In this document: positions 20,453 through 64,000 of the stretch, in pieces | How the letters are laid out: each line of letters starts with the position of its first letter | Numbering within the stretch: position 1 is the stretch's first letter | Source of the DNA: an uncultured Elusimicrobia bacterium | GTDB lineage: Bacteria; Elusimicrobiota; Elusimicrobia; UBA1565; UBA9628 | NCBI GenBank assembly: GCA_903830945.1 | Contig: CAIKVT010000026.1 | Coordinates: forward strand, 83,823 to 147,822 | DNA: 64,000 bases | Reading direction: 5' to 3' | Position numbers and translations under genes: made by a program | The notes under the pieces: generated by a model | Databases searched by the model: none | What the model was told of the DNA's origin: nothing | The model's input: only the letters and a program-made list of their open reading frames with translations

Positions 20453-20460
20453 TCATGACG

Positions 20461-40640: not shown

Positions 40641-40696
40641 TCCCATTTCATGCTACGAAAATATTTCAAGAAAAATGTTAGAATCCAAACGGTTTC

Positions 40697-42628: not shown

Positions 42629-42649
42629 CTCACAGCTGATAGGTCGAGA

Positions 42650-43170: not shown

Positions 43171-43174
43171 AAAG

Positions 43175-44464: not shown

Positions 44465-44942
44465 GCATGAGAAGGCCGGCACGGAAAGGCGCGCGCACGC
44501 CCGTCTGCCCGTGGTGGAAGGGATGATCGAACCAATCACCGTCCAGTTCGGGCCGGGCGACGGGACCAGCGCCCCGACCGCCGCCACCGGTCAGCCGGCA
44601 ATCCTCACCAATCTCTCCGCGGGGGGGATGTCTTTGCTCATGTTCCTCGAGCCGCCGCATACCCGGAGCCTGGACATGGTGCTCAGTATCCCGGGCCTGG
44701 AGCACGTAGCCATCACGGGCCGGGTCGTGCGCGTCCACCAGAGAGGGCCCACCTACAACGTGGGCATCGCCTTCACGCAGATCAGCAAGAAGCATCAGGA
44801 CCAGATCAGCAAGATGGCCCTGGACCACGGCGATTGCGAGACCCGCATCTCCCTGAAGCTCCTGGAAGTCTGCGTAAAACCCTGCACCTTCCACTCCCTT
44901 TGCGCCAATCCGCAGAAGATGCCCTTCTGGCCGAAGAAATAG
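44445..44942 (+). CDS. PilZ-domain protein, possible cyclic-di-GMP receptor
   Basis: 165 residues. The N-terminal GTERRAHARLPV matches the RxxxR part of the PilZ ligand motif, and LTNLSAGGMSLLMF matches its second part (N/D-x-S-x-x-G). The barrel continues through ITGRVVRVHQRG and YNVGIAFTQIS. The C-terminal 50 residues carry three cysteines. It may sense cyclic-di-GMP and control surface functions. Sits between miaB and miaA, overlapping miaB by 20 bases; TAGGAG upstream of the ATG gives a good ribosome-binding site. Confidence 0.85.
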   Translation: MNQTPHKHEKAGTERRAHARLPVVEGMIEPITVQFGPGDGTSAPTAATGQPAILTNLSAGGMSLLMFLEPPHTRSLDMVLSIPGLEHVAITGRVVRVHQRGPTYNVGIAFTQISKKHQDQISKMALDHGDCETRISLKLLEVCVKPCTFHSLCANPQKMPFWPKK

Positions 44943-45949: not shown

Positions 45950-47211
45950 CAGAAAAAGTCATCCTCGTCGGCGTAGGCTTAAAATCCGAGGCCGCGGTCA
46001 TGGCCGCGAGCCTCTCGGAGCTGCACCGGCTGGTGGAGACCGCGGGCGGCGAGGTGGTGGGTGCGTTATCCCAGACACTCTCGCGCTACCACCCCGGCAC
46101 GCTCATCGGCGCCGGCAAAGTCACGGAAATCGGCGACGAAGTCCGCGCCCGGCATGCCGTGACGGTCGTCTTCGACCGGGAGATCTCACCCGCCCAGCAG
46201 AAGAATCTGGAATCCGCCATCCAAGCCAAGATCGTCGACCGCACGCGCCTCATCCTCGACATCTTCGCCAAGCGCGCCCGCACCAGCGAAGGACGCCTGC
46301 AAGTGGAGCTGGCGCAGCTTTCCTACATGCTGCCGCGCCTCACCGGCGCCTGGCGCGGCTTCTCCCAGCAGGTCGGCGGCATCGGCACGCGCGGGCCAGG
46401 AGAACGCAAACTCGAGTACGAACGGCGCCACATCTCCTACCGCATCTCGCACCTGCGCCGCCAACTCGAAGACATCCGCTCAGCGCGCCTGCTGCGCCGG
46501 GAGCGGCGCCTCGCCGTACCCGTGCCCCAGGTGGCGCTCATCGGCTACACCAACGTGGGCAAGTCCTCTTTGCTCAACGCCTTCACACGAGGAGCGGCCG
46601 GCGTGTATGCCGATGACAAACTCTTCGCCACCCTCGACCCCACGTCGCGGCGCGTGCGCCTGCCCGAGGGATCCTGGGCCGTGATCACTGACACGGTCGG
46701 CTTCATCCGCCGCCTGCCCACCACCCTGATCGCCGCCTTCCGCGCCACTCTGGAGGAGGCCGTCATGGCCGACTGCCTGCTCGTGGTGGCTGATGCCTCC
46801 TCAAGCGAGGCCGAAGCGCAGCAGGCCGCTGTGGCCGAGACCCTGCGCGAATTGGGCGCCGAAGGTCTGCCGCAGGTAGTGCTCTTCAATAAGGTCGACC
46901 TGCTCGACGGCCCAGGACGGCGAGACTTAGAGGGCCGCCATCCGGACGCCGTCTTCGTATCCGCTGCCTCTGGCGAGGGCCTCTGCGCGGCCTTGACCGC
47001 GGTCCAGGACACCCTCTCCAGACGCTGGCTGCTGCGCGAGATCGAGTTGCCGGCAGCCCGGGCCTTCAGCCTGGCGTCCTGGGTCCGACAATCAAGCCAA
47101 GTACTTTCCCAGAACGCGGTCCAAGACCGCATCCGGATGCGTTTGAGGCTGACCCAAGAGAACTGGGAGCGTCTTCAAAAAAAGCTCGCCTCCACAAAGA
47201 GAAACTCCTAG
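45946..47211 (+). CDS. hflX: GTPase HflX
   Basis: 421 residues, full length. N-terminal HflX domain (residues 1-195, with RYHPGTLIGAGKVTEI and VGGIGTRGPGERKLE), G domain with Walker A GYTNVGKSSLLNAF, G3 DTVGFIRRLPTTL and G4 FNKVD, then a short C-terminal domain. HflX binds 50S subunits and splits stalled ribosomes under stress. ATGA overlap with miaA. Confidence 0.95.
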   Translation: MTEKVILVGVGLKSEAAVMAASLSELHRLVETAGGEVVGALSQTLSRYHPGTLIGAGKVTEIGDEVRARHAVTVVFDREISPAQQKNLESAIQAKIVDRTRLILDIFAKRARTSEGRLQVELAQLSYMLPRLTGAWRGFSQQVGGIGTRGPGERKLEYERRHISYRISHLRRQLEDIRSARLLRRERRLAVPVPQVALIGYTNVGKSSLLNAFTRGAAGVYADDKLFATLDPTSRRVRLPEGSWAVITDTVGFIRRLPTTLIAAFRATLEEAVMADCLLVVADASSSEAEAQQAAVAETLRELGAEGLPQVVLFNKVDLLDGPGRRDLEGRHPDAVFVSAASGEGLCAALTAVQDTLSRRWLLREIELPAARAFSLASWVRQSSQVLSQNAVQDRIRMRLRLTQENWERLQKKLASTKRNS

Positions 47212-47231
47212 AAAAGCCGGACTAGTTTTGC

Positions 47232-47237
47232 TACACT
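47232..47237 (+). promoter_or_regulatory. Possible -10 box of plsY
   Basis: TACACT at 47232-47237, 24 bases before the plsY ATG at 47262. The -35 region is weak. Confidence 0.3.
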
Positions 47238-47261
47238 TCTTCGCTCATCGTTGACCGCCCC

Positions 47262-47879
47262 ATGAGAATCGACATCTGGGCCCCAGCCGGACTCGTCGCG
47301 CTCAGCTATCTGGCGGGGGGAATCCCCACCGGCTACCTGGTGGTGCGCCGGCTCATGAACATCGACATCCGCAAACATGGCTCCGGCAATCCTGGCACGG
47401 CCAACGTTTACCGCGTCGCCGGCGCGCAGGCCGGCGCCGTCACTCTACTCGTCGACGCGCTCAAGGGTTTCATACCGGCGCTCATCGCGCACCGCCTCTA
47501 TCCGGACCAGCCCTGGTTCGTCGTCCTCTGCGGCGCCGCGGCCATCATCGGACACGACTGGACCGTGTTCCTGGGGTTCAAGGGCGGCAAGGGAGTGGCC
47601 ACCTCGGCGGGCGTCTTCGCCGCGCTGACCCCGCAACCCATGGCCCTGGCGCTCATGTCCTTCCTCGGCGGGATGTGGGGCAGCGGGCACATCTCTATGG
47701 GCTCGCTCTGCGCCGCCGCGGTCTTGCCTGTGCTCTGCCTTCTGCTCGGCGCACCCCATTCCTACACCGTCGCGGCGCTGGCCGCCTCCCTGCTCATCGT
47801 CTATAAGCACATCCCGAACATCAAGCGCCTGCGCCAAGAGCACGGTCTCGCCTTCCGTGCCGAGGACAAGCGGAGCTGA
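47262..47879 (+). CDS. plsY: Acyl-phosphate:glycerol-3-phosphate acyltransferase
   Basis: 205 residues, polytopic (about five to seven helices). GIPTGYLVVRR, then KHGSGNPGTANVYR and GHDWTVFLGFKGGKGVATS are the three conserved PlsY motifs for glycerol-phosphate and acyl-phosphate binding. Makes lysophosphatidic acid in the inner membrane, the first step of phospholipid synthesis. Starts a run of small genes extending to the MerR-type regulator. Confidence 0.95.
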   Translation: MRIDIWAPAGLVALSYLAGGIPTGYLVVRRLMNIDIRKHGSGNPGTANVYRVAGAQAGAVTLLVDALKGFIPALIAHRLYPDQPWFVVLCGAAAIIGHDWTVFLGFKGGKGVATSAGVFAALTPQPMALALMSFLGGMWGSGHISMGSLCAAAVLPVLCLLLGAPHSYTVAALAASLLIVYKHIPNIKRLRQEHGLAFRAEDKRS

Positions 47880-47884
47880 GCCCC

Positions 47885-48508
47885 ATGGCCAAAAACGAAA
47901 GCGGCGGCTCCCAAGGCCCGGCGCAGCCCTCCGTGGAAAAAGAAGTCCACATCTACTCCTTGGCCACGACGGCCACCGAATGCATAATCTTCCTGGAAGA
48001 GCTCTCCGGCAACCGCCTCCTGCCGATCTGGATCGGCATCACCGAAGGTCAAGCCATCGCCATCCGCTTCTCCGGCATCGTCTTGCCCAGGCCCCTGACT
48101 CACGATCTGCTTTTAGGAACCATCACGCAACTGGGCTATACGGCACAGAAGGTGGTGGTCTGCGACATAAAGGACAACACCTTCTATGCCCGCATCCGCG
48201 TAATCAAGGACGGTCAAACCGTGGACCTCGACAGCCGGCCCTCCGACGCCATCGCCGTGGCCGTGCGCGCCGGCTGCCCGATCTATGTAGAGGAGAAGGT
48301 CTTTGCCAACTGTCAGACTCTGAGCAAGCCGATCACCGAGGACGAAGTCGGCAAATTCAAGGCCGACCTCAAGAACCTCAAGCCCGAGGACATCTTCAAG
48401 GACCTCAAAAAGAACGTCAAGCCAAAAAAGAAACCAGCCCAGGAAAAAGAGGCTCCCGGGCCCGGGGCCGAAGGCCCCGAGCCAGAAGGAGAAAACAACG
48501 ATGAATAG
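47885..48508 (+). CDS. Bifunctional nuclease family protein (DUF151)
   Basis: 207 residues. Residues about 18-150 are a DUF151/BFN domain: LPIWIGITEGQAIAIRF, then RPLTHDLLLGTI and RPSDAIAVAVRAGCPIYV are characteristic. The rest is a Lys/Glu/Pro-rich tail. Plant and bacterial members have reported DNase/RNase activity; many are poorly characterised. The stop overlaps the HU gene by 8 bases. Confidence 0.88.
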   Translation: MAKNESGGSQGPAQPSVEKEVHIYSLATTATECIIFLEELSGNRLLPIWIGITEGQAIAIRFSGIVLPRPLTHDLLLGTITQLGYTAQKVVVCDIKDNTFYARIRVIKDGQTVDLDSRPSDAIAVAVRAGCPIYVEEKVFANCQTLSKPITEDEVGKFKADLKNLKPEDIFKDLKKNVKPKKKPAQEKEAPGPGAEGPEPEGENNDE

Positions 48509-48764
48509 ACTAGACATCATCAAAGCCGTAGCCAAAGTGCTGACCACGAAAGGGGAAGCCGCCCGAGCCGTGGAGACGACGTTCGAGACCATCCGCGCGG
48601 CCCTCGGCCGCGAGGAAAAGGTGGTGATCTCCAACTTCGGAACCTTCCGCGTCAAGCACCGCCAGCAGCGCCAAGGGCGCAACCCCAAGACCGGACAGCA
48701 GGTGACGGTGCCGCCGCGCAAGGGCGTGCGCTTCAAGGCGTCGAAGAACCTCCTGCAGCCGTGA
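48501..48764 (+). CDS. HU/IHF-family nucleoid protein
   Basis: 87 residues, full length. Helices IIKAVAKVLTTKGEAARAVETTF, then VVISNFGTFRVKHR and the DNA-binding arm GRNPKTGQQVTVPPRKGVRFK with the intercalating proline are clear. Binds and bends DNA; a histone-like role in nucleoid packaging. Followed by a GTGA overlap with the MerR-type gene. Confidence 0.92.
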   Translation: MNRLDIIKAVAKVLTTKGEAARAVETTFETIRAALGREEKVVISNFGTFRVKHRQQRQGRNPKTGQQVTVPPRKGVRFKASKNLLQP

Positions 48765-49129
48765 ACCCGGGGACGCCCCTCATCCCGGACCAGGACTTCT
48801 TCACCATGGGCGAAGCGTGCCGCATCGCCCAGGTAGCTTCATACACCCTGCGCTACTGGGAATCGCGACTGGGCTGGCCCCGGCCGGCCCGCAGGCCCAG
48901 CGGCCACCGCCGCTACGGCCGCGCCGATCTAGATACCATCTTCGAGATCAAGCGCCTGCTCGTCGGCCGCCGCATGACCATGGCTGGAACGCGCAAGGCC
49001 CTCCTGGAGAGACTCCGAGGCATCAGAGGCGCAGATGCCGGAGAGCCCGCGGCCGCTCCGGCCGCGATGCAGCTGCTGCGCGAGGTCCGGACCGAACTGC
49101 GGGAACTAGCGTCGGAGCTTGCGAAGTGA
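48761..49129 (+). CDS. MerR-family transcriptional regulator
   Basis: 122 residues from GTG at 48761, which overlaps the HU stop. The winged-helix N-terminus (FTMGEACRIAQVASYTLRYWE, then RPSGHRRYGRADLDTIFEIKRL) is the MerR DNA-binding motif, and the C-terminal coil (about 75-120) dimerises. No ligand-binding cysteines. This HU-MerR pairing is common in deltaproteobacteria-like genomes, where the regulator probably acts on neighbouring genes. Confidence 0.88.
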   Translation: MNPGTPLIPDQDFFTMGEACRIAQVASYTLRYWESRLGWPRPARRPSGHRRYGRADLDTIFEIKRLLVGRRMTMAGTRKALLERLRGIRGADAGEPAAAPAAMQLLREVRTELRELASELAK

Positions 49130-49172
49130 TAGGATTTATACCGTCGCCAGGGGTTGACAAGACGCTCTCGGC

Positions 49173-49247
49173 CGGGGACTGGCTCAATGGTAGAGCGTTC
49201 GCTTGGGGTGCGAAAGGTTCCGGGTTCGATTCCCGGGTCCCCGACCA
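49173..49247 (+). tRNA. tRNA-Pro(GGG), CCA encoded
   Basis: A 75-base cloverleaf: acceptor CGGGGAC/GTCCCCG, D stem GCTC/GAGC, anticodon stem TTCGC/GCGAA with loop TTGGGGT (anticodon GGG), T arm CCGGG-TTCGATT-CCCGG, discriminator A and encoded CCA. Lies 43 bases after the MerR-type gene. Confidence 0.9.
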
Positions 49248-49298
49248 AGGGTGTCTTGTCGGCCTATGTCATTCTTTCTTAATATATAAGCGTTAAGA

Positions 49299-49371
<73 letters not shown>

Positions 49372-49439
49372 AGTTTTATTCGCGCAGCGCTGGGCCGATA
49401 GGCTCGGCCTGCATACCGTAGAGGTCCGGGGAGCTGGTC

Positions 49440-50474
49440 ATGGCAAACGAAGCACCGAGCACTGACACCGTCAGCCAGTACTTCAAGGGCATCCAGAAAC
49501 TGGCCCCAATAGACCGCGAAGAGGTCCACAAGCTCTGGAAGAAGGCCAAGCGGGGCGACCGCCAGGCCAAGCTGCGCATCATGGAGACCAATCTGCGCCT
49601 CGTGGTGCCCATCGCCCGGAAGTACCATCGGCAGGGCATCGAATTCATGGACTTGATCGAGGAGGGCAACCTGGGCCTGATGCATTCCATCGACAAGTTC
49701 GAGCCGAAGAAAGGCTACCGGTTCTCCACCTACGCCTCCTATTGGATCGAGCAGTCCATCCGCCGCGCTGTCGAAGAGCAGTCCAAGACCATCCGCATCC
49801 CGCCGCATGCATGGGAAGCTCTGCGCAAATGGCTCAAGATGTGGGAAAAGCTCCACGCCAAGCTGGGCCGCGACCCGTCCTTGGCCGAGATGGCGCGCAC
49901 CATGCACTGGACGGCCCGCCAGGTCCGCGGAGTCCTCGACGCCGCGGAGGCGGCGCGCGGCATAGGCTCCTTGGAAGCGCCGGTGGATTCCGAGGACAAC
50001 AACATCACTGTCGAGGACATGCTCCCCGAAAACGACAACCAGTCCCCGGAGAACCTCATATCGGTCCTCAAGCTCCACGACGAACTCAACCAAGCCATGC
50101 AGGAGATCGGCGACCGCGAGCGGATGATCCTCGAGTTCCGCCATGGCCTCACGGGCCAGGCGCCGATGACGCTCGAGGATGTGGGCAAGCGCCTAAAGCT
50201 CTCACGCGAGCGCATCCGCCAAATCGAAGAGCGCGCCCTGCTGCGCCTGCGCCGCGTGTCCAACCGCATGGGCCTCATCGATGTGGGCGAAAGCCGCTCC
50301 GCGGCCACGCCCAACCTGCAGCCCGGCTGGTTTGCCCCGAAGGTGAGGACCGACATCCTCGGCCAGACCATCCCCAAAGGCCGCACCACCGCGCCCACGG
50401 CGCCGCACGCCGTCCGCCGCGCCCCCCGCAACCTCATCCTCAACCGCGCCGCGGCCAAGGGCAAGGAGAAATGA
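49440..50474 (+). CDS. Sigma-70 family RNA polymerase sigma factor (group 1/2)
   Basis: 344 residues. Regions 1.2-2.4 at about 10-115 (LRLVVPIARKYHRQGIEFMD, YRFSTYASYWIEQSIRRAV), region 3 (RDPSLAEMARTMHWTARQV), region 4 (LEDVGKRLKLSRERIRQIEE) with an intact helix-turn-helix. This is RpoD/RpoS-like rather than ECF or sigma-54. There is no long acidic region 1.1, so it is probably a secondary or RpoS-type factor. About 75 residues after region 4 are Pro/Arg/Ala-rich with no known counterpart. GGGAG 7 bases before the ATG. ATGA overlap with apt. Confidence 0.92.
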   Translation: MANEAPSTDTVSQYFKGIQKLAPIDREEVHKLWKKAKRGDRQAKLRIMETNLRLVVPIARKYHRQGIEFMDLIEEGNLGLMHSIDKFEPKKGYRFSTYASYWIEQSIRRAVEEQSKTIRIPPHAWEALRKWLKMWEKLHAKLGRDPSLAEMARTMHWTARQVRGVLDAAEAARGIGSLEAPVDSEDNNITVEDMLPENDNQSPENLISVLKLHDELNQAMQEIGDRERMILEFRHGLTGQAPMTLEDVGKRLKLSRERIRQIEERALLRLRRVSNRMGLIDVGESRSAATPNLQPGWFAPKVRTDILGQTIPKGRTTAPTAPHAVRRAPRNLILNRAAAKGKEK

Positions 50475-51001
50475 TGCCCGCGACTTCTCTTGACCCGGCC
50501 GCGTTCATCAAGGACGTACCGGATTTCCCCAAGAAGGGGATCGTATTCAAGGACATCACGCCCCTGCTGGGCAACCCGGCCGCCTTCACCGCGGCCATTG
50601 ACCGGATGGCGGAGCCGTTTAAGGACGCGGGCATAAGCTATGTGGCCGGCATCGAGTCGCGTGGTTTTTTGTTGGCCGCGCCTCTGGCCTGCCTCCTGAA
50701 AGCCGGCCTGGTCCCCATCCGCAAGAAGGGCAAACTCCCGCGCAAAACCAAGTCCGCCTCCTACGCCCTGGAGTACGGCCAGGACTGCATCGAAGCACAC
50801 GAAGACGCCTTTCCGGCCGGGGCCAAGGTCCTGCTGGTCGACGACGTGCTGGCCACGGGCGGCACGGCCAAAGCGGCCTGCGAGCTCATCGAGGCCATCG
50901 GCGGCCAGGTGGTCGGCGTCTCTTTGCTCATCGAGCTTGACTTTTTGAACGGCCGCGCTAATCTGGCGGGGCGAGACGTAAGGGCCCTGGTCAAGTACTG
51001 A
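50471..51001 (+). CDS. apt: Adenine phosphoribosyltransferase
   Basis: 176 residues from the ATG at 50471 (the next codon, at 50474, is also ATG); the overlap with the sigma-factor stop and an upstream AAGGAGA support it. FIKDVPDFPKKGIVFKDITP, then YVAGIESRGFLLAAPLA and the PRPP motif VLLVDDVLATGGTAKA are intact. Converts adenine and PRPP to AMP in purine salvage. Confidence 0.95.
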   Translation: MMPATSLDPAAFIKDVPDFPKKGIVFKDITPLLGNPAAFTAAIDRMAEPFKDAGISYVAGIESRGFLLAAPLACLLKAGLVPIRKKGKLPRKTKSASYALEYGQDCIEAHEDAFPAGAKVLLVDDVLATGGTAKAACELIEAIGGQVVGVSLLIELDFLNGRANLAGRDVRALVKY

Positions 51002-51028
51002 CAGCCAGAGGAAGAACCCGCTAGCGCT

Positions 51029-51577
51029 ATGGACTTCCCAAGCGTGCTCGACCGCCTGCTCGAATCATTCTCCCAGGAGGGCATCCGCTGGGCCTTGACC
51101 GGCGGCTTCGCCATGGGGACGCTGGGCGCCGCGCGCGCCACGGCGGACCTGGACTTCCTCGTGCATCGCGACGACATGCCGCGCGTCCACGCCCGCCTCG
51201 AATGCCTGGGGTATCGCCGGATACACCACAGCGAGAACGTCTCGCAGTACGACCACCCCGAGGCCGCCTGGGGCTCCCTGGATTTCATACACGCCTTCCG
51301 GCCGCTGGCCCTGGAAATGCTTGGCCGCGCGCTCGACAAACCGCGGCTTGAAGGCCGCCGCATGCTGCGGGTCTTGAGGCCGGAGGACGTCATCGGGATG
51401 AAGGTCCAGGCCATGGCCAACAATCCAGCCCGGCGGCTGCGCGAGTTGGCCGACATCGAATCGCTGATCGAGGCGAACCGTGACGGCCTGGACTGGGACC
51501 TTATGAAGATATATTTCAATCTCTTCGGTCTGCAAGTCTCGTATGAGGACTTGAAGGAGCGCTTTGGACATGCCTAA
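51029..51577 (+). CDS. Nucleotidyltransferase-superfamily protein (AbiEii/MNT-like)
   Basis: 182 residues. WALTGGFAMGTLGAARATADLDFLVHRDD holds the GG-x-A and D-x-D-F elements of minimal nucleotidyltransferases, and VIGMKVQAMANNPARRLRELADIESLIE is the helical part found in AbiEii-type antitoxin/toxin pairs and in DUF6036-like proteins. It is followed at an 8-base overlap by a 62-residue partner, an arrangement typical of toxin-antitoxin or nucleotidyltransferase/substrate-binding pairs. Function inferred only. Confidence 0.7.
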   Translation: MDFPSVLDRLLESFSQEGIRWALTGGFAMGTLGAARATADLDFLVHRDDMPRVHARLECLGYRRIHHSENVSQYDHPEAAWGSLDFIHAFRPLALEMLGRALDKPRLEGRRMLRVLRPEDVIGMKVQAMANNPARRLRELADIESLIEANRDGLDWDLMKIYFNLFGLQVSYEDLKERFGHA

Positions 51578-51758
51578 CCAGGAAAACGCTCAAGAATCGT
51601 CGGCCCTGCGCCGAGACTTCGAAGCGATGCGCAGGAATACCGCCTCCCGCGCCCCGAAAAATGTAGACGAGTTTATCGCTTTCCTTGCTTTCGCCGGGTC
51701 ATTCGGAGCATCAGCCGTGCGGCACCGGCCCATAGATGCTGGCCGATGCAGGATCTAG
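51570..51758 (+). CDS. Small partner of the nucleotidyltransferase-like protein
   Basis: 62 residues from the ATG at 51570 (AAGGAG 10 bases upstream; a TTG at 51564 is an alternative). The helical core NVDEFIAFLAFAGSFG followed by a short Arg/Pro-rich end resembles the small proteins often encoded after this nucleotidyltransferase type. No domain database match can be claimed. Confidence 0.55.
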   Translation: MPNQENAQESSALRRDFEAMRRNTASRAPKNVDEFIAFLAFAGSFGASAVRHRPIDAGRCRI

Positions 51759-51792
51759 GGCCTCGAATTCTTTGTAGAATACGTGAGTTTTC

Positions 51793-51864
51793 GCCCCGAT
51801 AGCTCAATGGATAGAGCTAGCGCGTCCTAAGCGTTAGATGGGGGTTCGATTCCCTCTCGGGGCA
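51793..51864 (+). tRNA. tRNA-Arg(CCT)
   Basis: A 72-base cloverleaf: acceptor GCCCCGA/TCGGGGC, D stem GCTC/GAGC, anticodon stem AGCGC/GCGTT with loop GTCCTAA (anticodon CCT), T arm GGGGG-TTCGATT-CCCTC, discriminator A; CCA not encoded. A TAGAAT near 51773 may be its -10 box. Confidence 0.88.
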
Positions 51865-51889
51865 TTTTTGATGATCAGAGGTTAAAAAC

Positions 51890-52558
51890 ATGAGCAAACA
51901 GTGGGTCAGGGCGCAGGTCAAGAAGAACGAGCTCCAGGACACGGTGGACCGCGGCCTGCGCTGGGCGATGGAGAACCGTCAGACCGCGGGTATCGGCGCG
52001 GGGGCGATCGCGCTGGTACTCCTGTTAGCTGGACTTTTCCTTTATAGTCATCACTCCAGGCAGACCGCGGCCTGGGATGACTTGTCCCTGGCCAATGGTC
52101 TGGCCTACTCCGGCCAAACGGACGCGGCGCTCAAGAAGGTCGATGAGATCACCGCCGCCTACTCAGGGACCTCGGCCGCGGGCTACAGCCTGCTCTTTGC
52201 AGGGGATATGCTTTTCCATAAAGACCGCTTCGCGGATAGCGAGAAGTACTACAAGCAGCTGGTGGACCGCGGCCAGCCGCAGGTCCTGCTACCTTTAGCC
52301 TTGGGCGGCCTGGCCTTGGCCCAGGAGACGGGGGGGCAATGCGCGGAAGCAGTGAAGACCGGAGAGCGGTTCCTGGGCACCTATCCGGAGCATTTCCTGG
52401 CGGCCCAAGTGCACGCCTCATTAGCCCGTTGCGAAATGACATTAGGACAAAGAGATACCGCTAAGGCGACATTACAGAAGATCGCCCTGCAGTACCCGGA
52501 GACCTCCTGGGCGACCTGGGCCCAGGAGCAGTTGAAGGCCCTGGGAGGGGGGGTGTAG
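51890..52558 (+). CDS. Membrane-anchored TPR protein, YfgM-like
   Basis: 222 residues. Cytoplasmic N-terminus of about 30 residues, one helix (IGAGAIALVLLLAGLFLY, about 36-55), then TPR-like helical repeats (AWDDLSLANGLAYSGQTDAA, AAGYSLLFAGDMLF, AAQVHASLARCEMTLGQ) in the periplasm. Same plan as YfgM, a periplasmic chaperone partner of the Sec translocon and of outer-membrane protein biogenesis. AGAGG 8 bases before the ATG. Next to two porin-like genes, which fits an envelope role. Confidence 0.75.
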   Translation: MSKQWVRAQVKKNELQDTVDRGLRWAMENRQTAGIGAGAIALVLLLAGLFLYSHHSRQTAAWDDLSLANGLAYSGQTDAALKKVDEITAAYSGTSAAGYSLLFAGDMLFHKDRFADSEKYYKQLVDRGQPQVLLPLALGGLALAQETGGQCAEAVKTGERFLGTYPEHFLAAQVHASLARCEMTLGQRDTAKATLQKIALQYPETSWATWAQEQLKALGGGV

Positions 52559-54199: not shown

Positions 54200-54261
54200 G
54201 AGTCAGGTCTTAAATTTCACATCCGACCGGAAAAGCCCCCAATTTGCTAGGATTAACACGC

Positions 54262-55674
54262 ATGCTCAGACGGATTTGCACTGCCTCGTTCCTCCTGCTG
54301 ACCGCGCTCCCGGCCCGAGCCGCCAACCTCGACGTCACCGCCTCCTACAAGATGCGGGCGCTCTCCTACCAGAACCTCAACCTCGCCAGCGACAAGAACG
54401 CGCAGGACCGCCACTCCTTCATCGCCAACGACGCCAGACTCGGCATCGCCGTGCGCAAGATCGAACTCGAGCCCAAAGGCGGCGAAATGATGACCATGGA
54501 CGTCGCCGTCACCTTTCGCGCCCTCGGCGTCACCGGCTCCAGCACAGCCATGCAGGGAGAGCCCTACCGCCGCATCGCCAACAACTACCCCTCCGCCGAC
54601 TTCACGCCATTCCTGGAGAACGCATACCTCCGAGTCAACCACTTCCTCGGCTACCCCCTGGAGGCCACCATCGGCCGCCAGAACTACCGCCTAGGCTCCG
54701 GCCTCCTGCTCGATGACGACGGAGCCGGCCTCACCGGCGTTACCATAAGAGGGGACATCCCCTGGTGGGGGATGAAGGCCGAAGGCTTCGTCTTCGCGGA
54801 CCGCGACTCCCGGATGGCCTCCCAGGACGCCCCGGAGAACTCCCTGGCCCTCTTCGGCTTCGCCATTGACCTGCCCACCGAAGGCGTCTGGCAGCTCAAC
54901 CAACTCTTTGAACGCGACCGGGCCCCCCAACAGGTATTCGGATGCTCATACCCCAGCGGAGGCTCTCAATACGCCTGCTATGCCTCCAAGACCCTGAAAA
55001 GCTTCACCAGCGTGCGCTACGCCCTCAACTACGGCCCTATCGTCTTCGACGGCGAAGCCGCCTTCGAGAAAGGCCTGGCCGCCCCCATCGGCAACCCTAG
55101 CGACACCACGACCAACACACCGCCAGGCCGCATCACCTATAACAGCAACGCCCAGGTGGGCCGGGCCAAGTGGAAGATGCCCCTGCCACGCCTTGGAGAG
55201 GGCATTGCGCGCCTGAGCCTGGCCCGCGGCTCCGGAGACAAGGCTGACACCCCCACGCGCGACGAAGCCTTCTTCCCGGCCCACGGCCACCAGTTCAACG
55301 GCCTGGACCGCTCCGGGTTCGGCGATTTCTTCGGCGCCACCCCCTACAACGCCTTCGGCGGCAACTACGGCTCCACCACCACGGCCAGCGGCCTGCAGCA
55401 GGGCAACTCCGGCATCGTGGTCATCGGCATCGGCTACACGCCGCCCGCCTACAAGGGCTACATCCTCGACGTGGACTACTTCCTGTTCCAAAGCGAGCGC
55501 GCCGTCAACGACAGCCACGCCCTTGGCGGCGAATGGGACTTCCGCCTGCGCTACAACGTACAAGACCGCTTCGGGATCTCACTCTCCGCCGCTCTGTTCA
55601 AAGCCGGCAGCGCAAGCGCTGCCAAAGGCATCAGCGCAAAGAAGTACGCCCTAGAAGCCTTCGGCAAGTTCTAA
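54262..55674 (+). CDS. Alginate-export-type outer-membrane porin
   Basis: 470 residues from the ATG at 54262; an in-frame TTG at 54244 was set aside because the later start gives a clean signal (MLRRICTASFLLLTALPARA). The chain is beta-barrel like, with LRVNHFLGYPLEATIGRQNY and RLGSGLLLDDDGAGLTGVTI, the latter typical of AlgE-type export porins. It ends in KF. TAGGAT lies 8 bases before the ATG, so the mRNA may be leaderless. Substrate unknown. Confidence 0.78.
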   Translation: MLRRICTASFLLLTALPARAANLDVTASYKMRALSYQNLNLASDKNAQDRHSFIANDARLGIAVRKIELEPKGGEMMTMDVAVTFRALGVTGSSTAMQGEPYRRIANNYPSADFTPFLENAYLRVNHFLGYPLEATIGRQNYRLGSGLLLDDDGAGLTGVTIRGDIPWWGMKAEGFVFADRDSRMASQDAPENSLALFGFAIDLPTEGVWQLNQLFERDRAPQQVFGCSYPSGGSQYACYASKTLKSFTSVRYALNYGPIVFDGEAAFEKGLAAPIGNPSDTTTNTPPGRITYNSNAQVGRAKWKMPLPRLGEGIARLSLARGSGDKADTPTRDEAFFPAHGHQFNGLDRSGFGDFFGATPYNAFGGNYGSTTTASGLQQGNSGIVVIGIGYTPPAYKGYILDVDYFLFQSERAVNDSHALGGEWDFRLRYNVQDRFGISLSAALFKAGSASAAKGISAKKYALEAFGKF

Positions 55675-55996: not shown

Positions 55997-56518
55997 ATGG
56001 AAGACCGACAAAGACTGCGCCTCAAGCTGCCGGACGGCGCAGAATTCGAAGCTGAGGGAACGCCCGATTTCGTGCGCTCGGAGAGACAGGAATTCCTAGC
56101 CGGCCTACAGCCAAAATCTGAAATATCTAAAACGCCCCAGACCCCGACAAGAACCATCCAGGAGCCCACGATCGCCTGGGAAACCATCATCGAACACAAG
56201 GGCCATGGCATCCATCTAAGGGCCAAGCTGGCAGGAGACAGGCCACTAAAAGACGCCTGTCTCGTCCTCCTGGCAGCCTCCCAGAAGCTCCTGAACCAGC
56301 CGAAACCCACCGCAGCCCAATTAGCCAAATGGCTCAGGGTTTCCGGATATCCAGTGCAACGCATGGATCGCGCCTTGCAGGAAGGCATTACCAACGGCGA
56401 ACTTTTGGCGTCAGGATCCAGACGAGCCAGACGCTACGAACCCACCAACCCAGGCCGCATCAAGGCCTTCCTGCTGGCGCACCAGCTAGCCACGAGCATA
56501 TCCGGGGCCGCCAGCTAA
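55997..56518 (+). CDS. Hypothetical protein, possible DNA-binding C-terminus
   Basis: 173 residues. N-terminal strand-rich segment RLRLKLPDGAEFEAEGTPDF, then a linker, then a helical domain (about 100-165) with TAAQLAKWLRVSGYP and RMDRALQEGITNGELL, which could be a winged helix. It has its own promoter, an AAGGA ribosome-binding site and DnaA-box-like sites upstream, and lies about 320 bases before the dif-like site. Less GC-rich than neighbours. I do not recognise the family; a role in replication or chromosome handling is a guess from context only. Confidence 0.6.
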   Translation: MEDRQRLRLKLPDGAEFEAEGTPDFVRSERQEFLAGLQPKSEISKTPQTPTRTIQEPTIAWETIIEHKGHGIHLRAKLAGDRPLKDACLVLLAASQKLLNQPKPTAAQLAKWLRVSGYPVQRMDRALQEGITNGELLASGSRRARRYEPTNPGRIKAFLLAHQLATSISGAAS

Positions 56519-56833: not shown

Positions 56834-56861
56834 ACTTACGATAAGATATATTATGTTACAT
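56834..56861. other. dif-like XerCD recombination site
   Basis: A 28-bp site of 11+6+11 form: XerC-side arm ACTTACGATAA, centre GATATA, XerD-side arm TTATGTTACAT. The right arm differs from the common TTATGTTAAAT at one base, and the left arm and spacer length fit known dif sites. It lies where genes flip from plus (left) to minus (right), as expected at a replication terminus. XerCD would resolve chromosome dimers here with FtsK. Confidence 0.8.
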
Positions 56862-57440: not shown

Positions 57441-57718
57441 AAAAACAAAAAACCAGGCAAGTCTAAAAAAACCAAGTAAAGAAAAAGAGGCAAAAACCAG
57501 CCAAGGATCCTAAGAAGCGGGGGACTAAAAAACACCATATAAGGGCCCAATCGGATGAACGAGGGGGAAAACCATCAAGATGACCCTGCTAAAAAAACAA
57601 GGAAAGCTTTAGATGGTCTATTTCGAGCCGGAAAAACATTCAGTAGGAGCGAATATCCCGAACCCCACGAGGATGTACCCCCCCCCACGGATCAGGATCA
57701 GCTCTTTTCCCGATGCTG

Positions 57719-58942
57719 TCAGCGCTCGGCGAACACGATATCCGCCACCGTCTCACGTCGGCGCACAAGCCGAGCATGCCCCCCCGCCATAAGGACCTCC
57801 GCAGCGCGCGGCCGGGAGTTGTATTGCGAGCTCATGGCGAATCCATAAGCACCGGCCATGCCAACGACGAGGATGTCTCCGGGCTCCACCGGCGCCAAAA
57901 GCCTCTGCCGGGCCAGAAAGTCACCCGATTCACAGATCGGACCGACCACGTCCACCCGGTGAGAAGGTCCGCTCCTCGGCCGTGCCGGCGCGATGGGATG
58001 GAAGGCTCCATAGAGAGCCGGTCGGGCCAGGTCGTTCATGGCCGCGTCGACGATCACGAAGCGGCGCCGGGACGTCTGCTTGCGGTAAAGCACGCGGGTC
58101 AGCAGAGATCCAGCGTCAGCCACGAGATAGCGCCCCGGCTCGACGAGCAGGCGCGCAGCCGGCCAGGGCGAGAACTCCCGCTCCAAGGTCTCGGCGAGCT
58201 GCGCGCAGTCCAGCTCCGGCTCTGCGCCATAACGCACGCCCAGGCCGCCTCCCATATCCACGAGCGAGAACGGGATGCCCTCTGCCTGCAGCCGCCGCAG
58301 CATGCGCGCCACGGCCTCCGCTGCCCGCTTAAAAGGCCCCAGCTCCCGGATCTGCGAGCCGATGTGGCAATGCAGACCCTTAAAGTCCAACCAGCGGCTG
58401 CGGTGGCCGCGCCGCGCCAATTCCAGCACCAGAGCGGCCTCCACCCCGAACTTTTCCTCGGCCCGCCCAGTGGTCACATGAGGATGCGTGCGCGCCTTGA
58501 CGTCCGGATTAAGCCGCACAGAAAAGGGCGCGACGCGGCGCCGGCGTCGGGCGACGCGCTCCAAGGCTCCCAGCTCTTCGGCGGACTCCACGTTGAAGGT
58601 CAGCACGGCGCGGCGCAGGCCCAGGTCCATCTCGTCGGCGGTCTTGCCCACGCCGGAGAACACGATGCTCCCCGGCGCAAATCCCGCGGCCAGGGCCCGC
58701 ACAAGCTCGCCGCCCGAAACAACCTCGGCTCCGAGCCCGGCCTCGGAGAGCACGCGGCACACGGCCCGGTTCGGATTGGCCTTAAGCGCGTAGCAGATCG
58801 ACGTCCCCAGCCTGGAGAAGGCTCGGCGCAGGCGCTCGAGCCTTGCAAGGATCGCCGCCCGAGAGTAGATGAAGACCGGCGTGCCGAAGCGGCGGGCCAG
58901 CGCTGCGGCGGGGACGCCCTCGATCCTCAGCTCTGCGGGCAT
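57719..58942 (-). CDS. lysA: Diaminopimelate decarboxylase
   Basis: 407 residues, full length. PLP lysine in YALKANPN, then HCHIGSQI, the GGGLGVRY glycine loop, EPGRYLVADAG and CESGDFLA are the standard motifs. It makes lysine from meso-diaminopimelate, last step of the pathway, in the cytoplasm. The ATG is 3 bases after the stop of the upstream protease/barrel gene, so both are on one minus-strand transcript. Confidence 0.95.
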   Translation of the reverse strand: MPAELRIEGVPAAALARRFGTPVFIYSRAAILARLERLRRAFSRLGTSICYALKANPNRAVCRVLSEAGLGAEVVSGGELVRALAAGFAPGSIVFSGVGKTADEMDLGLRRAVLTFNVESAEELGALERVARRRRRVAPFSVRLNPDVKARTHPHVTTGRAEEKFGVEAALVLELARRGHRSRWLDFKGLHCHIGSQIRELGPFKRAAEAVARMLRRLQAEGIPFSLVDMGGGLGVRYGAEPELDCAQLAETLEREFSPWPAARLLVEPGRYLVADAGSLLTRVLYRKQTSRRRFVIVDAAMNDLARPALYGAFHPIAPARPRSGPSHRVDVVGPICESGDFLARQRLLAPVEPGDILVVGMAGAYGFAMSSQYNSRPRAAEVLMAGGHARLVRRRETVADIVFAER

Positions 58943-58944
58943 GC

Positions 58945-61884
58945 TCAGAAGATCCGCCCCAGATAAATATAGAAAGCGCCGCCCGGGCTCGTGGTTCGGC
59001 GGGCATAATCCATAGAGATGACCAGCGGAAACTGCTGGAGGATGAAGGTATAGACGGTCAAACCCGCTCCCACGGAATTTCGGACGTCATGCCAGTGGCT
59101 GCCTTCGACCTGGCCCGCCGAGTTCCAGACCGAACCCGCGTCGGTGAAGATGCTGCCGAAGACGGCCTTAAAGTAAAAATCAGGAAACAGATACCACATA
59201 TGGTAGTCGAGATTCGGCAAGACAGGGAAGCGCCATTCCGCGTTAAGGCCGGCCAGGCGGCCGCCGGTATCCGGCGCGTTGAAGCGGCGATAGCCCCGAA
59301 CCCCGCCACGCAAGCCGCCCACGCCGCCCACGCCGCCGTCCACTCCTCCCAGGACCAAGCCCCCGCTGTCACGGCCCAGGCTCTGCTCTGCGTAGACGCG
59401 CAGAGCCGCGGTGGTCTGACCGCCGGTCGGCACGAACTGATGCCCCTCGGCCACGGCATCAGAATAGCGCACGTTGCCGCCCAGCGTGTCGGCCGCCTGG
59501 GTGTAGGCCAGGCGCACGCGGTCGCCCGCCAGAGGCACCAGGTAGCGTCCCGTGGCCGCATCACGGATGAACGCCACCGAGCCCAGCCGGCTCTGCCTGG
59601 CGTAGTTCTCGTTCAGGTCGGTGTAGCGGAAAGTCTCAACGCTGGAAGCCAAGCTCGCGGCGAAGGCGTGGTGACGATCAAGAGGGTAGAGCACCGTCGC
59701 ATATTCATTGTACTGCGTCTGGTCGTAGTTGAGGTCGCGGGCAGGATCGTAAAGGCCCTGGTAGCCCACCCCGGAAGCCCCGAAGAAAACCCTGGGCCGA
59801 TAGCGGTTATATTGGTAGTCGACCTGATAGGCGAAACTCTGGGCGGAATGGAGTTCGACCGTAGCCGCGGCCTGATGGATGTTCAGGAGATCGGAGCCCT
59901 GCCAATAGCTGGCCCAGTAGAACCCCCCCTGTGAGGAGTAGAAGAAAAGCGGCAGAAAAAGGTCGGTCGAAGCCGTGAATCTATAAGGACGCTCGGCGGA
60001 CAGGGCCACCGGCGCGCTGGAAACCCCAACGCCGCCCATGCCGGGCTTCTCCGCCGGGGGCCAGGATCGGCGCTGCACGGGCAGATCCGCAGCCTCCAGG
60101 TCGGTGCGTTTGGCCTTATGGATGTGCACGCTGCCGCCGCGCAGGGCCGCGAAGGCGATGTCCCCGTCCGGGGTGTAAGTCGGAGTAAAGCTGCCCCCGA
60201 TGGAACGGGTCAACTGCGTGACCCGATGGGCGGCCAGGTCGAGCTCGCAGACCTCGGTGGATCGGTCGTCGTCGCGCACAAAAAGGACACGCCGGCCATC
60301 CGCCGATACCACCGGGTCGCGCGCCCCCCCTCCCACGTCCTCAAGCTGGGCCACGGAGCGGTCTCGGAGATCGACGCGGTAGAGTCGCCGCCCCCGGCGC
60401 GCGGAGCCAAGGACATCCCGCCCTTCGCTCGAGTAGACCACGGCGCGGCCGTCCGGGGTAAAAGTGGGCATCTCGTCATCCTCAGGATCCGCGGTGATCT
60501 GGGTGATCTTGCCGCCGGCCAGGTCGTAGAGATAGATGTCCGTGAAGGAATCCTTCATGCCGGAGAAGGCCAACTGCCGGCCGTCCGGGGAGAAAGCCGG
60601 CTGGGCCACGTTCTGGAAGCCCGGCAGCTCACGACGCTCCAGACGCCGCGTGCGTGTGTCGTAAAGATAGAGGCCGTCGCGGTGGTTGCGGGTGCCCGCG
60701 AATACCAAGCGCGAGCCGTCCCGAGAGAGGTCCAGGACGCGGGAGAGGTACGCGAAGTTTCCCATGGGGATGTTCTCGATAGCCGTCCGATCGAGGCTCC
60801 AGAGTCTCCGACAACGGCGGGTGCCCAGGTCCATCGCATAGACGGCGGGCGGGTATCCCTGGCGAGTGGAGAGATAATACATCGTCTTGCCGTCGGGGGA
60901 AAATAGAGGGGCCGTGTTGAACTGCGGAATGTCCGGCGTCGGCTGCGTCAATCGAGGACCATAATCCAACGGCTCGCGTCGCCTCTCCAGGCGCACCTCG
61001 CGCTGGTACTTGGTCTGCTCAAACTCCCGGAACTTGCTGTCGAACTCGAAGACGTCAAGGCCCACAAGCTCGCCGAGAACGGCCGAGGCCTCGAATCGAG
61101 TGGCGAAGAGCTTGAGCAAGCGTCCGACCTTGCGCCGGCCGAACTGCGCAGCGAGGAAGTCGATGGCCGCGCCCCCTTCCTTGTAAGCCAGGGTGATCTG
61201 ATGCGGCTTCAGGTGGCCGAAATGCTCCAGGTGAACCAGCGGGATGAGGCCGCCCGAGGTCGCCGCATCCCGTATGGTCATCTCCTCGATGGTCGACTCG
61301 ATGACGTGGGTCACCTGGCTCGGCATGCCCTCCATCATCCAAAGAGGATAGATCACGCTCTTGATGATCGCGCCGGTCCGCCAGGGGCCGTTGATGAGCA
61401 CCTGGAACTGCATTATGTGGGTGAACTCGTGAGTAATGACCTCTTCGAGCCAACGATCGGTGCCGTCGCTGTAAACCATGAAGCGGTTCTTGAAAGGTTC
61501 CGTGATGCCGCCGGTCCCGTCGCCTGTATCGGCAAAGGTGGACTGCTCGAAGTCATTTGGGCAAGCGTAAAGGAAAAACGGGCGCCGGTACCACTGGTCC
61601 CGCTTCTTGGCGTTGCCCTTGGCCCAGACCGAAGGTTTCGCCGGGATCTCCAACTCGCGCGACACCCGCGCGAAGGCCTTTTCCAGGATCGCCGCGGCCT
61701 GCGCCACTCTGGGCATGGAGCCCTCATAATAATAGATGTCGAAATGCTCGGTGGAGCGCACCTTCCAGTGAAAATCCTTAAGGATGACCTGGTTCTGGCC
61801 GAAACCCTGGGCCCCGACAGAGGCCGCAGCCAGAATCAGAAAGGACGCGGCCAAAAACGCCGAAAGAAGGGTGTTAGGCTTCAC
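58945..61884 (-). CDS. Secreted zinc-metalloprotease-like protein with TolB-type propeller and outer-membrane barrel
   Basis: 979 residues. Signal peptide (LLSAFLAASFLILAAASVGA). Residues about 45-310 resemble a peptidase MA-type domain with the zinc motif HEFTH (about residue 152) and a downstream Glu-rich helix. Residues about 325-640 are a TolB/WD40-like propeller (FSPDGKTMYY, FSPDGRQLAF, FTPDGRAVVY, YTPDGDIAF). The remainder (about 655-979) is a beta-barrel with a Gly-rich strand region and a terminal RIF, as in Omp85/surface-antigen barrels. A protease, propeller and barrel in one chain suggest an outer-membrane processing or sensing enzyme. Substrate unknown. Confidence 0.78.
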   Translation of the reverse strand: MKPNTLLSAFLAASFLILAAASVGAQGFGQNQVILKDFHWKVRSTEHFDIYYYEGSMPRVAQAAAILEKAFARVSRELEIPAKPSVWAKGNAKKRDQWYRRPFFLYACPNDFEQSTFADTGDGTGGITEPFKNRFMVYSDGTDRWLEEVITHEFTHIMQFQVLINGPWRTGAIIKSVIYPLWMMEGMPSQVTHVIESTIEEMTIRDAATSGGLIPLVHLEHFGHLKPHQITLAYKEGGAAIDFLAAQFGRRKVGRLLKLFATRFEASAVLGELVGLDVFEFDSKFREFEQTKYQREVRLERRREPLDYGPRLTQPTPDIPQFNTAPLFSPDGKTMYYLSTRQGYPPAVYAMDLGTRRCRRLWSLDRTAIENIPMGNFAYLSRVLDLSRDGSRLVFAGTRNHRDGLYLYDTRTRRLERRELPGFQNVAQPAFSPDGRQLAFSGMKDSFTDIYLYDLAGGKITQITADPEDDEMPTFTPDGRAVVYSSEGRDVLGSARRGRRLYRVDLRDRSVAQLEDVGGGARDPVVSADGRRVLFVRDDDRSTEVCELDLAAHRVTQLTRSIGGSFTPTYTPDGDIAFAALRGGSVHIHKAKRTDLEAADLPVQRRSWPPAEKPGMGGVGVSSAPVALSAERPYRFTASTDLFLPLFFYSSQGGFYWASYWQGSDLLNIHQAAATVELHSAQSFAYQVDYQYNRYRPRVFFGASGVGYQGLYDPARDLNYDQTQYNEYATVLYPLDRHHAFAASLASSVETFRYTDLNENYARQSRLGSVAFIRDAATGRYLVPLAGDRVRLAYTQAADTLGGNVRYSDAVAEGHQFVPTGGQTTAALRVYAEQSLGRDSGGLVLGGVDGGVGGVGGLRGGVRGYRRFNAPDTGGRLAGLNAEWRFPVLPNLDYHMWYLFPDFYFKAVFGSIFTDAGSVWNSAGQVEGSHWHDVRNSVGAGLTVYTFILQQFPLVISMDYARRTTSPGGAFYIYLGRIF

Positions 61885-61929
61885 GGGAATCGGCCGAATA
61901 CGGTGAAGCCTGGCCCATTACCGGCACCA

Positions 61930-62928
61930 TTACCGCTTCTTGGATCTCTTCTGCGGGGAACGGCGGTTGAGGTCCCGCAGCGCCGCCAGCGCCTTGGCGT
62001 CGTTAGGCACGAGCTTCAAAACCCGCTGCCAGGCATCGCGAGCCTCGACCGGATGGTTGAGCTTCTGCCAAGCCATGGCCACGGCCGCGTGCATGCGATC
62101 CTTGGGGATGCCGAAATCGGGCTGGTCATCGGCGGGAAGACCGCGCTGCATGAGCGCAAGCGCTTCCTGGAACCGGCCCGCCTCGAAAGCCATCTGCCCC
62201 AAGTAAAACTGCGCCCGGCGGGACGGCAGGCCTCCCGCGACCTTGAGGGCCTCAAAGCATTCCATGGCTCGTTCGGTGAGCTTGGCTCCCCAGAGGCTCA
62301 AGCCAAGATTCTCAATGATCAACGGGTCGTTGGGATCATGATACCGGAGCCTCTCATACTCCTTGACCGCCGCCTCATAATCGCCCTGATGATAGCAGAG
62401 TTTCGCGGCGAGCATGCGCACCTCCTTATCGTCGGGAAAACTGCGCAGGTGCTTCTGGTACTCCTCCAGAGCGAAAGGGTAGAGGCCGAGTTCCTGATAC
62501 ATCACCCCGAGGCAGTAGAAGAGGCGGGAGTCGAGCGAACCCAAACGGCGCGCCTCCTCGAGCTCGTTGACGGCGTCCGGGTAGGTCTGCACGCCATTGG
62601 CGAAATGCAGCATGCCCAGATCGACTAGGGCCGTGAAATCCTGCGGGTTAGCCGCAAGCCGCACCTGGGCGGAGGCGATGGCGGACTCGATCTGGGGGCG
62701 AACTGGGAAATCAGCGCGCGGCCGGAATGGCCGGGGGAGCCGCATGAATCCGAAATAGAGCAGCGCGCAGAGCAGAACCAAAAACGCCAACCATGCCCAG
62801 GGCGATTCCAGCCATCCGATCAAGGAGTGCCAGACCGACCGCGATGGGTGGATGCGGACAGTGGGCCGCGCACCATGGGGACCGGCTTGCAAGCCGTCCG
62901 CGCCCGCCGGAGTGGACTGTCCCGTCAA
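61930..62928 (-). CDS. Membrane-anchored TPR protein
   Basis: 332 residues. One helix (SPWAWLAFLVLLCALLYFGFM, about 42-63), then tetratricopeptide repeats to about residue 310 (ALVDLGMLHFANGVQTYPDA, LFYCLGVMYQELGLYPFALE, AQFYLGQMAFEAGRFQEALA), and a Lys/Arg end. Its start overlaps the S1-domain gene by 4 bases. Probably a scaffold for an envelope or RNA-related complex; unknown partner. Confidence 0.78.
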   Translation of the reverse strand: MTGQSTPAGADGLQAGPHGARPTVRIHPSRSVWHSLIGWLESPWAWLAFLVLLCALLYFGFMRLPRPFRPRADFPVRPQIESAIASAQVRLAANPQDFTALVDLGMLHFANGVQTYPDAVNELEEARRLGSLDSRLFYCLGVMYQELGLYPFALEEYQKHLRSFPDDKEVRMLAAKLCYHQGDYEAAVKEYERLRYHDPNDPLIIENLGLSLWGAKLTERAMECFEALKVAGGLPSRRAQFYLGQMAFEAGRFQEALALMQRGLPADDQPDFGIPKDRMHAAVAMAWQKLNHPVEARDAWQRVLKLVPNDAKALAALRDLNRRSPQKRSKKR

Positions 62929-64000
62929 TCGTTCTTCTCTGGTGAAAGGAGTTGGCCGAGGGTCAGCGGCGGAGGCGCCTTGAGGTACTGGGCCATGCGC
63001 TTGCGGTCCTTGATCTCCTCGAACTTATTGAAGGAGACCAGGACTTCGAAAGTATTGGTGTTGACGGACAGGACGACGGCGGAGAACGGGGCGCCCGCCT
63101 TGTAGCCGGGAACCGGATCGCAGTCCGCCGCCGCGCAGAAAGCGAGCGTCCCCCCCTCCAAGACGAGCTTCAGGCCCGTCGCCGAGGACTCGACGACCTG
63201 ACCCTTGACCACGGTCTTGGGCGGGAACTTGCGGCGTAGGGCATCCGCCGGGTTGGGCATGAGCTGCTTCATTCCCAGCAGGACGGGGTCGGCTGATTTT
63301 TCGTCCGCTGGCTTGGAGAGTACCTTGACCTTCACCTTAAAACCGCGCTCCACGCCGGAGGGCAGCTTGGGCAGGCCCCAGGAGACGTCGCTCATGCGCA
63401 CGGTGCCCTCGACGCCGCCGATGTCCACGGTCACACCGTTGGCGCCGACATGCAGGATGCGGCCGATGCGCACCTCTCCGACGCGCAGTTCGGCCATGAG
63501 CTGCACCCGCCGCTTGGCGGCCTCCTCCTCGAGCACGGCCTTGCGCGAAAGCACGAGCTGGCGCTTGGCCTCGTTGACCTCGATGATGTAGCAGCGCACG
63601 CCTGTGTTGACCATACGGGCCGGAGTGCGCACCGGATGAAGGTCGGCCAAGGAGGCCGGCAAAAACGCCGTCACGCCGTTGACGTTGACGAGATAGCCGC
63701 CCTTGATAGCGGCCATGACCCGGCCGCGCACCCGGCCCTTCTCCTGAAAGACCTTAAGCGCGGCCACCCAACCGGTCTCGGCCCGCGCCCGCTTGTACGA
63801 AAGGAGCGTGTGGCCGTCGCGCCGACCGGGACCCGCGCGCAGGACCGGGATGCGCTGGCCCACGGCCGGCAATTTGCGCTCGCCGCGGTCGCCTTCGTCG
63901 TCGAATTCAGAAACCGGGACCGCGCCCTCGTTCTTCTCCCCCACATCCACCAGAACGTAATCCTTTGTCATGGAGATGACCTTGACCCAAGCCACCTGCT
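62925..64000 (-). CDS. S1-domain RNA-binding protein (5' end outside window)
   Basis: At least 358 residues; the frame is open to the window edge, and the apparent GTG start (63995) lies in the middle of an S1 domain (KVISMTKDYVLVDVGEKNEG), so the true start is beyond the window. Three or four S1 modules are visible (YVLVDVGEKNEGAVPVSEF, GGYLVNVNGVTAFLP, GVTVDIGGVEGTVRMSDVSW). It resembles ribosomal protein S1 or a related translation/RNA factor. Followed by the TPR gene. Confidence 0.82.
   Translation of the reverse strand, partial: QVAWVKVISMTKDYVLVDVGEKNEGAVPVSEFDDEGDRGERKLPAVGQRIPVLRAGPGRRDGHTLLSYKRARAETGWVAALKVFQEKGRVRGRVMAAIKGGYLVNVNGVTAFLPASLADLHPVRTPARMVNTGVRCYIIEVNEAKRQLVLSRKAVLEEEAAKRRVQLMAELRVGEVRIGRILHVGANGVTVDIGGVEGTVRMSDVSWGLPKLPSGVERGFKVKVKVLSKPADEKSADPVLLGMKQLMPNPADALRRKFPPKTVVKGQVVESSATGLKLVLEGGTLAFCAAADCDPVPGYKAGAPFSAVVLSVNTNTFEVLVSFNKFEEIKDRKRMAQYLKAPPPLTLGQLLSPEKND

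What the first reader, a model, noticed from the sequence alone, without database searches (positions are those of the whole stretch)
56834..56861. dif-like site at the gene-orientation switch
The 28-bp 11+6+11 site nearly matches known dif sequences, and lies between a run of mostly plus-strand genes and a run of minus-strand genes. Both point to the replication terminus. This would fix the map position of the terminus in this genome from sequence alone.
Basis: partly seen in the sequence, partly recalled or inferred. Interest (0 to 1): 0.7.

Follow-up and report, generated by a model that had tools for sequence, protein, structure and literature searches.

The report
Elusimicrobiota dif site with converging G-tracts
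The 28-base site is the real chromosome-separation site (dif) of a bacterium of the phylum Elusimicrobiota; runs of six or more Gs point at it from both sides like road signs, yet the base bias left by DNA replication does not change there, so it probably marks where the chromosome is sorted out at division but not necessarily where copying ends.

Summary
The site is real: ACTTACGATAAGATATATTATGTTACAT at 56834-56861, one copy in the genome, found in 30 of 56 genomes of the order (own included). It is conserved over exactly 28 bp (1.5-1.8 bits/base against 0.2 in the flanks). The genome encodes XerC-like, XerD-like and FtsK proteins. It is dif.

The gene-orientation switch is real but is inherited synteny, so weak evidence for a terminus. 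Gene-corrected strand composition switches sharply at dnaA but not at dif in 6 of 7 order genomes; in G198 one state persists along a 551-kb contig with dif near its middle. So dif does not fix the fork-meeting point.

What converges at dif is a polar motif: G-runs of 6 or more point to dif from both sides whatever the gene direction (odds ratio 20); the flip lies within about 5 kb of dif in all 7 genomes and at dif in distant G034. GGGNAGGG shows no flip; in E. coli the reverse holds. This is a candidate Elusimicrobiota FtsK-guiding motif, matched by a diverged FtsK-gamma recognition helix. FtsK reading the G-runs is inferred, not shown.

The parts
56834..56861 (+). dif site, 28 bp
   Evidence: Single copy in genome; conserved in 29 order relatives with flanks at background
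56834..56844 (+). putative XerC arm ACTTACGATAA
   Evidence: Assigned by alignment with the known dif layout; GATAA invariant in 30 genomes
56845..56850 (+). central 6-bp spacer GATATA
   Evidence: Variable at spacer positions 1 and 3 among relatives
56851..56861 (+). putative XerD arm TTATGTTACAT
   Evidence: Most conserved arm, 1.81 bits per position
55997..56518 (+). conserved ORF of 173 aa next to dif, no Pfam match
   Evidence: orthologue on the same side of dif in all six order relatives compared
54244..55674 (+). alginate-export-like protein, syntenic neighbour
   Evidence: Pfam PF13372; synteny
57719..58942 (-). lysA-like PLP-dependent decarboxylase, first gene right of dif
   Evidence: Pfam PF02784/PF00278; 71% identical in L010, where dif lies in the same place
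3691..52552 (+). 24 runs of G>=6 pointing right toward dif (5 opposed C runs) left of dif
   Evidence: stratified tests
57678..63155 (-). 5 runs of C>=6 (minus-strand G-runs pointing left toward dif), none opposed, right of dif

Best explanation
The site is the chromosomal dif of this Elusimicrobiota lineage. XerC and XerD bind the left and right 11-bp arms and resolve chromosome dimers. The septum-bound DNA pump FtsK brings dif to the septum by moving along DNA in the direction set by polar guide motifs, which in this phylum are runs of six or more G (also GGAGGGGG) rather than GGGNAGGG. These tracts point toward dif on both sides. Shown here: the site, its uniqueness and conservation, the presence of the enzymes, the G-tract polarity, and the changed FtsK-gamma recognition helix. 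Inferred: XerCD recombination at the site, FtsK reading the G-tracts, and forks usually meeting elsewhere (beyond the XerC arm), because strand composition does not switch at dif.
For: Uniqueness. Conservation of exactly 28 bp in 30 genomes; same gene neighbours across the order. XerC-like protein beside topA and XerD-like protein beside recA, best models TIGR02224 329.8 bits and TIGR02225 326.1 bits. FtsK motor with alpha domain and a weak gamma match. G-tracts: GGGGGG coding/template 561/113 in genes pointing to dif, 38/159 in genes pointing away, intergenic 67:18, top of 1950 hexamers. The polarity peak lies within about 5 kb of dif in all seven order genomes. It is length-specific: exact G2 and G3 odds ratio 1.0, G6 9.8, G7 59. 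In G034, G6 against C6 is 38:0 left and 4:26 right of dif. E. coli control behaves as known, GGGNAGGG 10:0 and 0:3, while Elusimicrobiota GGGNAGGG shows no flip. Recognition helix SSARATN(I/L)LS replaces E. coli GYNRAARIIE, R1300 to N and E1303 to S; those residues are needed for full KOPS recognition (PMC2680272).
Against: No binding or recombination data exist for this organism. The FtsK-gamma match is below Pfam's cut-off in all 12 Elusimicrobiota genomes where one was seen. Both Xer proteins score just under the NCBIfam equivalog cut-offs. G-tract counts in the seven order genomes are not fully independent, because the region is syntenic. Right of dif the own-genome contig holds only 46 kb and 17 tracts. 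Dif away from the compositional terminus is unusual for dif.
Confidence: 0.8

Rival explanations
1. The site is dif and also the point where replication forks normally meet. The missing composition switch is a relic of an older chromosome layout.
For: Gene directions and G-tracts both converge at dif. In relative G208 the composition switch lies about 6 kb from dif.
Against: A switch at dif is rejected in G000 (scaled log-likelihood -44.5), G198 (-56.2), G204, G099, G113 and G228. The same state is kept across genera whose proteins are often only about 50% identical, which is old for a relic. In single-contig genome G034 the best switch is about 119 kb from dif, near the point opposite dnaA.
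Confidence: 0.15
2. G-tract polarity is a by-product of replication or transcription bias and does not guide FtsK.
For: G-runs could follow leading strands passively. Tracts also point away from dnaA in the own genome, 14:40 left and 8:2 right.
Against: Polarity flips at dif where mononucleotide composition does not, and holds whichever way the gene points. Threshold between G5 and G6. In G034 the tracts follow dif, not the composition switch.
Confidence: 0.25
3. The site is an attachment site of a Xer-dependent mobile element or plasmid, not the chromosomal dif.
For: Dif-like sites with GC-rich spacers do occur elsewhere in relatives.
Against: Single copy; same neighbours in the same place across the order; AT-rich spacer as in other chromosomal dif sites; G-tracts converge on it.
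Confidence: 0.02
4. The skew minimum in the window marks a replication origin.
For: Raw cumulative GC skew bottoms near 57-60 kb.
Against: The minimum follows gene direction; the direction-corrected signal is unchanged across the site. The origin-type switch lies at dnaA on contig C69.
Confidence: 0.01

Closest known systems
Chromosomal dif/XerCD systems (E. coli, B. subtilis; Kono et al. 2011, PMC3025954, predicted dif for one Elusimicrobia genome)
   Same: 11+6+11 layout, one copy, near-identical XerD arm, XerC and XerD present
   Different: Not at the strand-composition switch in six of seven order genomes, whereas Kono et al. report outliers of no more than 3% of genome size; here at least 140 kb (4.3%) toward the XerC-arm side in the own genome and at least 255 kb (9%) in G198
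KOPS / SRS / AIMS polar guide motifs
   Same: Strand-polar short motif pointing to dif on both sides and away from dnaA, density highest within 5 kb of dif
   Different: A G-run of at least 6 instead of GGGNAGGG; the latter shows no polarity here. FtsK-gamma recognition residues differ
Atypical L. lactis KOPS (Nolivos et al. 2012, as summarised in PMC5357621)
   Same: Lineage-specific guide motif with a diverged FtsK-gamma
   Different: That motif is A-rich and works with XerS; this one is pure G with a two-recombinase system

Membership tests
dif (XerCD chromosome dimer resolution site) | 28 bp with two 11-bp arms of inverted symmetry and a 6-bp centre | tested here: met
   Left arm reverse complement TTATCGTAAGT against right arm TTATGTTACAT; conservation edges at exactly 28 bp
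dif (XerCD chromosome dimer resolution site) | One copy per chromosome | tested here: met
dif (XerCD chromosome dimer resolution site) | Genome encodes XerC and XerD | tested here: met
   each is a few bits under the equivalog cut-off but has that model as its best match
dif (XerCD chromosome dimer resolution site) | Lies near the strand-composition (GC-skew) terminus | tested here: not met
   This is a usual property, not part of the definition of the site
dif (XerCD chromosome dimer resolution site) | XerCD binding and FtsK-dependent recombination | not testable with these tools
   Needs biochemistry
KOPS (FtsK orienting polar sequence) | Strand-polar motif whose polarity flips at dif | tested here: met
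KOPS (FtsK orienting polar sequence) | Consensus GGGNAGGG | tested here: not met
   90:111 left, 81:126 right, no flip
KOPS (FtsK orienting polar sequence) | Bound by FtsK-gamma and directs translocation | not testable with these tools
   Only the diverged recognition helix is shown
AIMS | Leading-strand bias with abundance rising toward the terminus | tested here: inconclusive
   Bias strong and toward-dif density 0.87/kb within 5 kb against 0.34-0.45/kb further out, but the leading strand by composition and by dif disagree

The most novel reading that the evidence does not exclude
Throughout much of Elusimicrobiota, FtsK is guided by G-runs of six or more through a rewired gamma recognition helix, and the end point of FtsK translocation (dif) is stably separated by 100-250 kb or more from the place where replication forks meet, always on the same side.
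Probability: 0.45. Interest if true: 0.7.

Novelty: new variant of a known kind. Interest (0 to 1): 0.5.

Why it matters
Dif itself is ordinary. The value lies in a natural separation of two signals that usually coincide: strand composition (where forks meet) and polar guide motifs plus dif (where FtsK ends). It would let one test whether replication terminates at dif, a question discussed in PMC3025954, and adds a new candidate guide-motif/FtsK-gamma pair for studying how the two co-evolve. It also gives a way to place dif and arm orientation in fragmented genomes of uncultured bacteria.

Tried and rejected
Raw GC skew suggested an origin here; rejected because it follows gene direction. Gene-orientation switch as independent evidence: rejected, conserved synteny. 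GGGNAGGG as the guide motif: no polarity. Palindrome-like repeats GCCAAAAAGTTGGCA at +217 to +530 bp from dif: three copies, absent from the dnaA contig, one near-copy at +220 in G099; no function proposed. A first alignment of the sites without orienting strands understated conservation and was redone. Paper PMC3384302 is not held. Searches for a reported G-run guide motif found none in the held library; that is not proof of absence.

Full report
What was checked. The 28-mer ACTTACGATAAGATATATTATGTTACAT is at 56834-56861 on the + strand. The window is contig C26:83823-147822 of an 84-contig, 3.24-Mb genome, 99% complete. The best match of the neighbouring lysA-like protein is to an Elusimicrobia MAG (71% in nzgw215), so the organism is taken to be an Elusimicrobiota bacterium. 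The core pattern occurs once in the genome, and chance expectation in the window is 0.01.

It is dif. Searching 56 genomes of the order with up to 3 mismatches finds it in 30, mostly as a single strong match. Aligned, the 30 sites are conserved over exactly 28 bp: 1.64, 1.50 and 1.81 bits per position in left arm, centre and right arm, against 0.23 and 0.21 in the 30 bp on either side. In the close relative L010, 27 of 28 bases agree while the surrounding non-coding DNA has diverged. A weight matrix from 29 relatives gives the own site 56.2 bits, with nothing else near it on either contig examined. The genome encodes a XerC-like protein beside topA, a XerD-like protein beside recA (topA and recA recognised by eye from the translations), and an FtsK with motor and alpha domains and a weak gamma match. 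Kono et al. (PMC3025954) already predicted dif in one Elusimicrobia genome, so a dif here is expected.

The gene-orientation switch. Genes run toward dif on both sides in the order genomes examined, but one search shows that the same genes lie in the same order on both sides of dif (for example the 173-aa protein on the left and lysA on the right). It is therefore one inherited arrangement, not repeated evidence for a terminus.

Strand composition. I called genes by codon usage and compared third-position bases of plus and minus genes, which removes the effect of gene direction. At dnaA (C69, about 161 kb) the state switches sharply from lagging to leading (scaled log-likelihood gain 76, best point 0.6 kb from dnaA). 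On C26 the plus strand is in the lagging state from 1 to about 160 kb, on both sides of dif, and neutral beyond. A switch at dif is worse than no switch in G000 (-44.5), G198 (-56.2), G204 (-9.3), G099 (-12.4), G113 (-5.3) and G228 (-4.2); only G208 favours one, best at -6 kb. In G198 every testable 20-kb bin of the 551-kb contig keeps the same T/A sign, with dif near the middle. In dif orientation all six share the same state, so forks would arrive from the XerD-arm side and meet beyond the XerC arm.

What converges at dif. A screen of all 6- to 8-mers, stratified by gene direction, puts G-runs on top: GGGGGG 561/113 (coding/template) in genes pointing to dif and 38/159 in genes pointing away, odds ratio 20, z 14.6; intergenic 67 toward, 18 away. 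The best flip point of G6 polarity lies within about 5 kb of dif in all seven genomes and within about 1.4 kb in five, including -1.4 to -0.8 kb within 551 kb in G198. The effect depends on run length: odds ratios 0.99, 1.03, 1.2, 1.8, 9.8 and 59 for exact runs of 2 to 7. Density toward dif is highest within 5 kb, 0.87 per kb. In G034, G6 against C6 is 38:0 to the left and 4:26 to the right of dif, holding through the zone between dif and the composition switch. In the own genome alone the contrast is 46:14 left and 4:13 right (Fisher p 1e-4). Around dnaA the tracts point outward, 14:40 left and 8:2 right. As a control, E. coli within 50 kb of dif shows GGGNAGGG 10:0 and 0:3 and no clear G6 pattern, while the Elusimicrobiota show no flip for GGGNAGGG.

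FtsK. The gamma-like domain scores below Pfam's cut-off in every Elusimicrobiota genome tested, and its recognition helix reads SSARATN(I/L)LS in ten genomes, aligned with GYNRAARIIE of E. coli FtsK (PDB 2j5p). The E. coli residues R1300 and E1303, whose replacement impairs KOPS recognition (PMC2680272), are N and S here; residue numbers were assigned by my own count from the E. coli C-terminus, recalled from memory. This fits a different guide sequence but does not prove it.

Conclusion. The site is dif, with good confidence. The terminus claim must be split: dif is the convergence point of G-tracts and so, by inference, of FtsK; strand composition gives no sign that forks meet there. Whether the G-tracts are read by FtsK is inferred (about 0.7 in my judgement).

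Limits. Draft MAGs; simple gene calling; seven order genomes sharing synteny; the composition terminus of G000 was not located; the whole genome was not available as a file.

Noticed in passing
L307 (G209 C106, 4923 bp), site near 88-113: Contig with a 66-bp identical overlap of its two ends, so possibly a 4.86-kb circle, carrying one dif-like site with GC-rich spacer (GGTTACGATAACGGCTATTACGTTACAT) and metabolic-looking genes (aminotransferase-like, PhzF-like, by eye), no obvious replication gene. Possibly an excised Xer-dependent cassette.
   Followed up: partly
L304 near 227-252 and L305 near 7459-7484 (G085): Two dif-like sites with identical sequence GCTTACGATAAGGCCCATTCTGTTGCAT inside a repeat of about 240 bp (88% identical), one near a contig end.
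   Followed up: partly
L306 (G225 C108) near 8118-8143: Dif-like site ACTTACGATAACGCCCATTGTGTTACAT about 145 bp after an ORF that looks like an IS91-type transposase (by eye), close to the contig end.
   Followed up: partly
window 57060-57386: Three copies of a GCCAAAAAGTTGGCA-like inverted repeat just right of dif in AT-rich non-coding DNA (41% GC); one near-copy at the same distance from dif in relative G099, none on the dnaA contig.
   Followed up: partly
contig C26 160-186 kb (beyond the window): Strand composition becomes neutral from about 20 kb right of dif to the contig end, unlike the rest of the contig.
   Followed up: no
window 2327-5221 (+): 964-aa ORF with a transaldolase match and a partial phosphoglucose isomerase match, apparently a fused enzyme.
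   Followed up: no
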